A stretch of DNA of 37,228 nt, from the NCBI GenBank assembly GCA_016778675.1, contig JADHPA010000004.1, forward strand, positions 1 to 37,228, given 5' to 3'. A program made the position numbers and the translations under genes. Source of the stretch: Candidatus Pelagibacter sp. (GTDB lineage Bacteria; Pseudomonadota; Alphaproteobacteria; Pelagibacterales; Pelagibacteraceae). The notes below the pieces were generated by a model. The model made no database searches. It saw only the letters and a program-made list of their open reading frames with translations, and was not told the DNA's origin. Within the stretch, counting starts at the first letter, position 1; every line of letters begins with the position of its first letter. Shown here piece by piece: positions 36,072 to 37,228 of the stretch.

Positions 36072-36533
36072 TTAATTTCTAATTAAATTTTTACTATTTA
36101 ATTTTCCTAAATCTAAAAGTTTAGGATTTTGAGCTGTATGTGGATGGTCTTCACCTGCATAAATTTTAACTTTAGTTAATTGCTTTCTACCAAGAACACC
36201 TCCTGGTAACATTCTTTTAATTGCTAATTTTAAAGTCTCTCCTGGTTTATTCTTTTCTAATAATTTTTCAGGAGTTATTTCTTTAATTCCACCTGGATGA
36301 CCCGTATGTCTGTAGTATTTTTTGTCTTTAAATTTTTTTCCAGTAAATTTTGCATGCTCTATATTTTTAACAACAACAAAGTCACCATCATCCATGTGAG
36401 GTGTGTAAGTAGTTTTGTTTTTTCCTCTAACAATCATTGCTATTATAGATGCTAATCTTCCAACAACTGCTCCTTTAGCATCAATTTCAAACCAATTACT
36501 CGTTAATTCGCTACTTTTTAAAAATTTAGTCAT
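36072..36533 (-). CDS. rplM: 50S ribosomal protein L13 (start moved to 36533; ORF track 36599)
   Basis: NWFEIDAKGAVVGRLASIIAMIVRGK, DFVVVKNIEHAKFTGKKFKDKKYYRHTGHPGGIKE, VLGRKQLTKVKIYAGEDHPH. Confidence 0.97.
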   Translation of the reverse strand: MTKFLKSSELTSNWFEIDAKGAVVGRLASIIAMIVRGKNKTTYTPHMDDGDFVVVKNIEHAKFTGKKFKDKKYYRHTGHPGGIKEITPEKLLEKNKPGETLKLAIKRMLPGGVLGRKQLTKVKIYAGEDHPHTAQNPKLLDLGKLNSKNLIRN

Positions 36534-36615
36534 AGAGCGAGGATTAATACTATTAATAATTATAAAGTCAATTTTATATTTCTCTTGCAATATAGCCATT
36601 TAATGGTAATTTTTA

Positions 36616-36660
36616 TTTGCCGATTTGTTCCTATTGCAGGCTAATAATTGCTAAAAAGGA
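36616..36660 (+). promoter_or_regulatory. SAM-II riboswitch aptamer
   Basis: TTTGCCGATTTGTTCCTATTGCAGGCTAATAATTGCTAAAAAGGA fits the SAM-II pattern: P1 GCC/GGC (36619-36621/36639-36641), TATTGCA core, GCTAAAAAGG 3' segment, pseudoknot TCC (36629-36631)/GGA (36658-36660). Confidence 0.8.
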
Positions 36661-36679
36661 TTTTTTACCCACATTTTCG

Positions 36680-36738
36680 GTAGGCGCATTTGAACTGTAT
36701 TGTACGCCTTGCATAAAGCAAAAGTACTAAAAAAGGAG
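36680..36738 (+). promoter_or_regulatory. SAM-V riboswitch aptamer overlapping the metY ribosome-binding site
   Basis: GTAGGCGCATTTGAACTGTATTGTACGCCTTGCATAAAGCAAAAGTACTAAAAAAGGAG: P1 GGCG/CGCC (36683-36686/36705-36708), possible pseudoknot ACT (36694-36696)/AGT (36723-36725); AGGAG SD at 36734-36738, ATG at 36746. Confidence 0.88.
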
Positions 36739-36745
36739 TATTAAG

Positions 36746-37228
36746 ATGAGTACAAAAAGACAAAACCCAGAAACTATTGCATTGCATGGTGGTGATTATA
36801 GAAGTGATCCAACTACAAAAGCTGTAGCTGTGCCAATTTATAGAACAACTTCATATCTATTTGATAGCACTGAGCATGCAGCCAATTTATTTGGTCTAAA
36901 AGAGTTTGGAAATATCTACACAAGAATTATGAATCCAACCAATGATGTTCTTGAAAAAAGACTGGCTGCCTTAGATGGTGGATTAGCAAGTTTAACTGTC
37001 TCTTCTGGGCAAACAGCTTCAACCTTTGCTATCTTAAATGTTGCTCAAGCTGGGGATAACATTGTTAGTTCTACAGATCTTTATGGTGGAACTGTTTCAT
37101 TGTTTACTCATACATTGAGCAAGCTTGGTATTGAAGTTAGATATGCTGATCCAGCAGATCCTAAAAACTTTGAAAAAGCAATAGATGATAAAACTAGAGC
37201 TTTTTATGGGGAAACATTACCCAATCCA
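36746..37228 (+). CDS. metY: O-acetylhomoserine aminocarboxypropyltransferase/sulfhydrylase (3' truncated by the window edge; absent from ORF track)
   Basis: Frame from ATG 36746 open to the window end: [92 protein letters not shown]...; Cys/Met-metabolism PLP enzyme. Confidence 0.94.

What the first reader, a model, noticed from the sequence alone, without database searches (positions are those of the whole stretch)
36616..36738. Tandem SAM-II + SAM-V riboswitches in front of metY
Two different SAM-sensing aptamers lie about 20 nt apart in one leader. Seen directly: both have the xATTTG...TATTG(C/T)A core followed by a purine-rich 3' segment (GCTAAAAAGGA vs GCAAAAGTACT), and each can form its own P1 and pseudoknot. 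SAM-II is followed by TAAAAA-GGAT-TTTTTA, an AT hairpin that competes with the aptamer's A-rich 3' strand. SAM-V ends at the Shine-Dalgarno. From established knowledge, a SAM-II/SAM-V tandem (proposed transcription plus translation control) has been described in marine alphaproteobacteria, so this is probably a known arrangement and not a new class. The competing AT hairpin as the expression platform is my inference.
Basis: partly seen in the sequence, partly recalled or inferred. Interest (0 to 1): 0.7.

Follow-up and report, generated by a model that had tools for sequence, protein, structure and literature searches.

The report
Compact SAM-II plus SAM-V metY leader
The RNA leader of a methionine-synthesis gene in a SAR11 (Pelagibacter-like) ocean bacterium carries, in front of a well-known SAM sensor (SAM-V), a second shortened SAM-II-type sensor that standard models miss; the pair recurs in about a hundred related species without the terminator that earlier papers describe for such pairs.

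Summary
SAM-V is certain: 36673-36741, Rfam 80.7 bits against a cut-off of 41. That test is not valid here: no pelagibacteral SAM-II I scanned passes it, including the experimentally tested bhmT SAM-II of 'Ca. P. ubique' HTCC1062.

Comparative evidence shows the upstream element is real. It is a compact SAM-II-type pseudoknot with a 3-bp P1, at 36614-36663, found 106 of 106 times in fetched SAM-V leaders of metY (87) and mmuM (19) that lack a terminator. A model built only from mmuM leaders of other genomes finds the window's metY copy at E=2e-10.

The published SAM-II/SAM-V tandem (bhmT) has an intrinsic terminator between the aptamers. This one does not, and HTCC1062 metY and mmuM are listed in the papers I could read as SAM-V only. 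The AT hairpin is unsupported: 0 kcal/mol at 37 C, seen only in the closest relatives.

Instead, the metY linker carries T(C/T)GG(T/C) in 87 of 87 leaders (0 of 28 terminator-type ones), complementary to the P1/L1 strand GCCGA. This suggests a P1 switch. SAM binding and the switch are inferred, not shown. New variant of a known kind.

The parts
36614..36663 (+). compact SAM-II-type aptamer (whole conserved element)
   Evidence: R1 covariance model 71.1 bits; leave-own-genome-out profile 4.2e-15, mmuM-only profile 2e-10; 85% mean pairwise identity against 62% in the linker and 68% upstream
36619..36641 (+). P1 of the compact aptamer: G36619 C C with G36639 G C36641 (3 bp), closing L1 and the 5' pseudoknot strand
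   Evidence: pairs 100% kept in 45 distinct relatives; G-C replaced by A-U in 2
36622..36627 (+). L1 GATTTG (SAM-contacting segment in SAM-II)
   Evidence: GATTT invariant in 45 distinct sequences; role from the SAM-II literature
36629..36660 (+). P2 pseudoknot of the compact aptamer: UCC (36629-36631) with GGA (36658-36660) and GC (36636-36637) with GC (36650-36651)
   Evidence: 97% and 100% of cells paired; U-A to A-U compensatory change in 2 sequences; CTC/GAG version in a more distant hit, L198
36677..36682 (+). linker anti-P1 segment TCGGTA, complementary to T36618-A36623 (TGCCGA)
   Evidence: core pairs 87/87 in metY leaders; T(C/T)GG(T/C) in 0/28 terminator-type leaders; in the minimum-energy fold of the leader
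36673..36741 (+). SAM-V riboswitch aptamer (RF01826)
   Evidence: 80.7 bits, cut-off 41, E 6.1e-12
36682..36709 (+). SAM-V P1: AGGCG (36682-36686) with CGCCT (36705-36709); its first base abuts/overlaps the anti-P1 segment
   Evidence: sequence; inner 4 bp in the fold
36735..36738 (+). Shine-Dalgarno GGAG at the 3' end of SAM-V
   Evidence: sequence; inside the SAM-V match
36746..37228 (+). metY (O-acetylhomoserine sulfhydrylase), 5' part, runs off the window
   Evidence: TIGR01326 9e-68 over the 161 aa present; Pfam Cys_Met_Meta_PP 8.6e-44

Best explanation
The metY leader is a terminator-less tandem of two SAM aptamers. A compact SAM-II-type pseudoknot (3-bp P1, no P3, short P1-P2 connector) lies near the 5' end of the leader, 10 nt before the SAM-V match. 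SAM-V itself, as established, hides the Shine-Dalgarno when SAM is bound. I propose that without SAM the 5' strand of the compact aptamer (TGCCGA) pairs with the linker (TCGGTA), replacing P1, and that SAM captured by the nascent aptamer keeps P1 closed and leaves the linker free. The upstream aptamer would then be a co-transcriptional, probably more sensitive sensor acting on mRNA level or on SAM-V folding, with SAM-V as the translational gate. Shown here: both aptamer sequences, their conservation and association, the absence of an intrinsic terminator, and the conserved linker complementarity. Inferred: SAM binding by the compact element, the P1 switch, and the direction of its output.
For: SAM-V at 80.7 bits. 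Compact element in 106/106 fetched non-terminator SAM-V leaders of the genus, 87 metY and 19 mmuM; R1 hits 105 of 298 genomes of the order. Leave-out profiles 4.2e-15 and 2e-10. GATTT, TATTGC and GCTAAA invariant. Compensatory changes in P1 and P2. Conserved more than the linker or upstream flank. The same model finds SAM-II-like leaders of metX and metW in other genera of the order. It occurs without SAM-V before mmuM in two genomes (L169, L170). No terminator in the window, while the bhmT control is detected. Linker complementarity: 5 core pairs in 87/87; mean -11.1 kcal/mol against -2.7 for the upstream flank and median p 0.02 against GC-matched genomic segments; mean pair probability 0.86 against 0.003 for P1 in pseudoknot-free ensembles. 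Two solo SAM-V metY leaders lack both the compact element and TCGG. Published: metY and mmuM mRNA rise 7.1-fold and 6.1-fold in sulfur-limited HTCC1062 (PMC5069961), more than translational SAM-V alone must predict; in the bhmT tandem the linker was shown to block SAM-II (PMC11508383).
Against: Below both Rfam SAM-II cut-offs. Few covarying sites: 2 of 8 pairs, 4 cells. Fold energy of the leader is no better than shuffles (z 0.54). Dinucleotide shuffles, which keep CGG, give only p about 0.07 per metY linker and 0.22 for mmuM, so the switch is much weaker for mmuM. Linker changes at the core pairs are one-sided in metY, and a subtype covariation test beyond CCGAT was negative. The leaders are related, so 87/87 is not 87 independent events. 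mRNA changes may follow from translation or stability. The energy model ignores pseudoknots and ligand.
Confidence: 0.62

Rival explanations
1. One reading: SAM-II controls transcription through the TAAAAA-GGAT-TTTTTA hairpin, as in the published bhmT tandem with a terminator.
For: The letters are present and would use the aptamer's A-rich strand; at 10 C the hairpin is about -1.2 kcal/mol.
Against: 0 kcal/mol at 37 C; no GC pairs and no U-run after the stem; no terminator-like site; the arm is present only in the closest relatives (L049, L095), while the other leaders have AAAT/AATT there.
Confidence: 0.08
2. The compact element binds SAM and acts mainly at mRNA level by another route (Rho-dependent termination or RNA decay), without a linker P1 switch; the TCGG complementarity is incidental.
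For: metY and mmuM mRNA respond to sulfur limitation in HTCC1062; the mmuM linkers mostly lack TCGG yet keep the element.
Against: TCGG is fixed in 87/87 metY leaders, has no other complement known in SAM-V, and is absent where the element is absent or a terminator is present.
Confidence: 0.2
3. The compact element is a SAM-II-derived aptamer for a different ligand (for example SAH or another methionine-cycle metabolite), giving a two-input leader.
For: P1 and the connector differ from SAM-II; no binding data exist.
Against: The segments that hold SAM in SAM-II/SAM-V (AUUU, UAUUG, CUAAA) are invariant; associated genes are the same SAM-regulated ones.
Confidence: 0.07
4. The element is a non-functional remnant of the ancestral SAM-II plus terminator tandem.
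For: Other genera of the order have full SAM-II, terminator and SAM-V before metY, so loss of the terminator is plausible.
Against: The element is conserved at 85-88% identity, as much as the coding start, while the linker is near the shuffled baseline; it is retained alone, without SAM-V, in two mmuM leaders.
Confidence: 0.04

Closest known systems
[quoted passage not shown] Pelagibacter ubique' HTCC1062 (Poiata et al. 2009; PMC11508383; PMC9481103)
   Same: SAM-II-type aptamer 5' of SAM-V, methionine gene, SAM-V at the Shine-Dalgarno; a linker able to interfere with SAM-II
   Different: Published tandems have a full P1 and an intrinsic terminator after SAM-II (PMC9481103: always, in the original 120 examples). 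Here P1 is 3 bp, no terminator, an aptamer-to-SAM-V linker of only about 25 nt carrying TCGG, and the gene is metY
SAM-V riboswitch of metY (RF01826; crystal structure in PMC6061858)
   Same: The downstream aptamer is an ordinary member, same gene, same 69-nt match length as HTCC1062 metY
   Different: Published as a lone element for metY; here and in HTCC1062 itself a second aptamer precedes it
SAM-II / SAM_alpha (RF01726, RF00521), including metX SAM-II leaders of SAR11 relatives
   Same: L1 GATTT, TATTGC and GCTAAA cores, H-type pseudoknot, no P3
   Different: P1 of 3 bp instead of about 5-6, connector 4-10 nt; scores far below Rfam cut-offs

Membership tests
SAM-V (RF01826) | covariance-model score at or above the gathering score | tested here: met
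   80.7 bits, cut-off 41, full length
SAM-V (RF01826) | 3' end overlaps the Shine-Dalgarno of a methionine gene | tested here: met
   match ends 36741, GGAG 36735-36738, metY ATG 36746
SAM-V (RF01826) | SAM binding | not testable with these tools
   shown by others for HTCC1062 metY (PMC6061858); not for this sequence
SAM-II (RF01726 / RF00521) | score at or above Rfam gathering score | tested here: not met
   17.2/44 and 14.3/36; but no SAM-II of this order that I scanned reaches it, HTCC1062 bhmT included
SAM-II (RF01726 / RF00521) | H-type pseudoknot with P1 and P2, L1 in between, no P3 | tested here: met
   pairs kept in 97-100% of cells, with compensatory changes in both helices; P1 only 3 bp
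SAM-II (RF01726 / RF00521) | conserved ligand-site nucleotides GAUUU / UAUUGC / GCUAAA | tested here: met
   invariant in 45 distinct sequences
SAM-II (RF01726 / RF00521) | SAM binding | not testable with these tools
   needs in-line probing or ITC
[quoted passage not shown]
   SAM-II-type rather than Rfam-grade SAM-II
Published tandem SAM-II/SAM-V | intrinsic terminator between the two aptamers | tested here: not met
   0 terminator-like sites; positive control found in bhmT

The most novel reading that the evidence does not exclude
Most pelagibacterial SAM-V leaders recorded as single riboswitches are in fact two-aptamer devices. A compact SAM-II sensor at the 5' end switches its own P1 strand between itself and the linker next to SAM-V, so one ligand is read twice, once co-transcriptionally and once at the ribosome-binding site, without a terminator.
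Probability: 0.4. Interest if true: 0.75.

Novelty: new variant of a known kind. Interest (0 to 1): 0.58.

Why it matters
SAR11 bacteria are extremely abundant in the ocean and need reduced sulfur; metY and mmuM are among their few strongly sulfur-responsive genes. A second, overlooked aptamer could explain why metY and mmuM mRNA, not only protein, respond to sulfur limitation although SAM-V is considered purely translational. It also shows that Rfam cut-offs miss the SAM-II of this whole clade, so tandem counts are underestimates, and it gives a short natural system for testing how a linker gates an aptamer, the open question left by the 2024 bhmT study.

Tried and rejected
AT hairpin as terminator: rejected. 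Rfam threshold as a refuter: rejected after controls. Promoter consensus just upstream of the element: 37 of 106 best -10 matches sit 6 nt before the element, but scores are no better than shuffles (5.9 against 5.6), and the simple scan found fewer sites than shuffles, so no claim beyond 'plausible'. Covariation of the variable L1 base (GATTTG A/T) with the linker: negative. Thermodynamic stability of the leader: not significant. 'SAM-V is never alone': rejected, because solo SAM-V occurs before metY in G036 and G086, and a SAM-V match without a recognisable SAM-II lies before a gene that I take to be osmC in the HTCC1062-like genome. Pattern scan of the named genome collection gave no answer three times, so organism names were not obtained. 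Poiata et al. 2009 is not held, so its supplement could not be checked for these leaders.

Full report
What is there. The window ends in the leader and first 161 codons of metY on the + strand (TIGR01326 9e-68); rplM lies divergently upstream (Pfam L13). The genome is a SAR11 (Pelagibacter) MAG: G011 in its genus has 1,308,759 bases and SAM-V matches inside the intergenic regions that PMC2704228 lists for 'Ca. Pelagibacter ubique' HTCC1062 (metY 1005679-1005890, mmuM 732778-732938, bhmT 1127293-1127553), so I take G011 to be HTCC1062 (inference).

SAM-V. Rfam finds SAM-V at 36673-36741 with 80.7 bits against a cut-off of 41. It ends at the Shine-Dalgarno GGAG (36735-36738), just before the metY start codon (36746). 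This is the ordinary, published metY SAM-V (PMC6061858).

The upstream element by Rfam. SAM-II models give 17.2 bits (cut-off 44) and 14.3 bits (cut-off 36) within 36607-36675. Similar RF01726 scores occur elsewhere in the genome, so Rfam alone is no evidence. Controls show the test is not informative in this clade. Among leaders of the order that do carry a full SAM-II and terminator, the best score is 31.0 bits, and the HTCC1062 bhmT SAM-II, reported with a KD of 1.2 uM (PMC5069961), is not listed at all even at E=10. The metX- and metW-linked SAM-II of related genera also stay below the cut-off.

The upstream element by comparison. I fetched the surroundings of the SAM-V matches found in 298 genomes of the order, one genome per species. 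Of 134 distinct SAM-V leaders read, 28 have a full SAM-II followed by a CCACCGC...GGTGG-T8 terminator; the classification lists 29 rows because the HTCC1062 bhmT locus was fetched twice. The other 106, all from the window's genus, carry the same compact element, before metY (87) or mmuM (19). Its consensus is GCCGATTTG(A/T)TCC-TATTGC(G/A)GGC-N4-10-GCTAAAAxGGA. In the window it spans 36614-36663. The 21-nt core occurs once in the window with 2 mismatches to the consensus, none in 100 shuffles. A profile without this genome finds it at 4.2e-15 and a profile made only from mmuM leaders of other genomes at 2e-10. The element is 85% identical between metY leaders, against 62% for the linker (34-mer shuffled baseline 59%), 68% for the upstream flank, 90% for SAM-V and 84% for the coding start.

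Structure. P1 is 3 bp (G36619-C36641, C36620-G36640, C36621-G36639). P2 is a pseudoknot of UCC (36629-36631) with GGA (36658-36660) plus GC (36636-36637) with GC (36650-36651). On 45 distinct sequences 98.9% of cells pair. P1 shows a G-C to A-U change in two mmuM sequences (HTCC1062 and this genome) and P2 a U-A to A-U change in two others. A more distant hit (L198) has CTC/GAG in place of UCC/GGA. All SAM-contacting segments are invariant. A P1 of this size is not prohibitive: the SAM-V P1 here is itself only AGGCG/CGCCT, and its pocket superimposes on SAM-II (PMC6061858). The element lacks the P3 hairpin of SAM-V and is not at a Shine-Dalgarno, so it is SAM-II-type.

Independence from SAM-V. 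The compact-element model also finds SAM-II-like leaders of metX and metW in other genera. In two genomes the compact element stands before mmuM with no SAM-V at all (L169, L170). Conversely, two metY leaders of the genus have a weaker SAM-V and no compact element (L192, L194). The two parts are therefore separable, and their usual pairing is maintained.

Expression platform. No terminator-like site exists between the aptamers, while the scan does find the one in the bhmT leader. What is conserved in the linker is T(C/T)GG(T/C) directly before SAM-V P1: 87/87 metY leaders, 0/28 terminator-type leaders, and not in the two solo SAM-V leaders. It is complementary to the P1/L1 strand: in the window T36618-A36623 with T36677-A36682. 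The five core pairs are standard in 87/87. Pairing energy averages -11.1 kcal/mol against -2.7 for the upstream flank, median p 0.02 against GC-matched genomic segments. In pseudoknot-free ensembles the anti-P1 helix has mean probability 0.86 and P1 0.003. In the window's minimum-energy fold it abuts SAM-V P1. Limits: dinucleotide shuffles, which keep CGG, give only about 0.07 per leader; changes are one-sided; and the mmuM linkers, mostly with ATCAAAT or ATCAATC opposite L1, reach significance in under half of cases. I rate the switch as likely for metY and uncertain for mmuM.

How it most likely works. SAM-V blocks the ribosome-binding site when SAM is bound (established for HTCC1062). The compact aptamer is transcribed first. 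I propose that with SAM it folds and keeps its P1; without SAM, the linker, once transcribed, takes over the P1 strand. That makes it a co-transcriptional sensor whose state is set before SAM-V exists. The published finding that the linker of the bhmT tandem blocks SAM-II binding in full-length RNA (PMC11508383) fits this behaviour. Its output is inferred; published 7.1-fold (metY) and 6.1-fold (mmuM) mRNA rises in sulfur-limited HTCC1062 (PMC5069961) are compatible with an mRNA-level effect but do not prove it.

Against the literature. PMC9481103 states that in the original 120 tandems SAM-II always precedes an intrinsic terminator and counts 149 tandems. [quoted passage not shown] In G011 the compact element lies at 1005759-1005808 and 732859-732908, inside those same intergenic regions. 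No paper found describes it, but Poiata et al. 2009 could not be read. I therefore classify it as a new variant of a known kind.

Noticed in passing
G000:C28:13531-13658 (-), locus L002: The window's own genome has a second compact-SAM-II/SAM-V leader, before mmuM, with the P1 compensatory change (ACC/GGT) and a linker AATTGGTA largely complementary to the P1/L1 strand ACCGATT.
   Followed up: yes
L169 (G252:C1), L170 (G245:C22): Compact element alone, without SAM-V, shortly before mmuM; L170 keeps GATCAAAT, complementary to ATTTGATC of L1.
   Followed up: partly
L192 (G086), L194 (G036): Solo, lower-scoring SAM-V before metY without the compact element and without TCGG in front.
   Followed up: partly
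L178 (G027:C1:87691-87746): SAM-II-like pseudoknot whose 3' P2 strand reads CGGAGGTAAAAATG, so the Shine-Dalgarno would lie inside the pseudoknot: a possible translational SAM-II.
   Followed up: no
L198 (G458:C3:146377-146426, -): Weak SAM-II-like hit outside the order with a terminator-like hairpin and U-run before an 85-aa protein of no known NCBIfam or Pfam family.
   Followed up: partly
window 36072-36599 (-): The longest rplM reading frame starts about 30 aa before the L13 domain; the conserved start MTKF... (near 36530) is more likely the true one, leaving about 215 nt of intergenic space for the metY promoter.
   Followed up: partly
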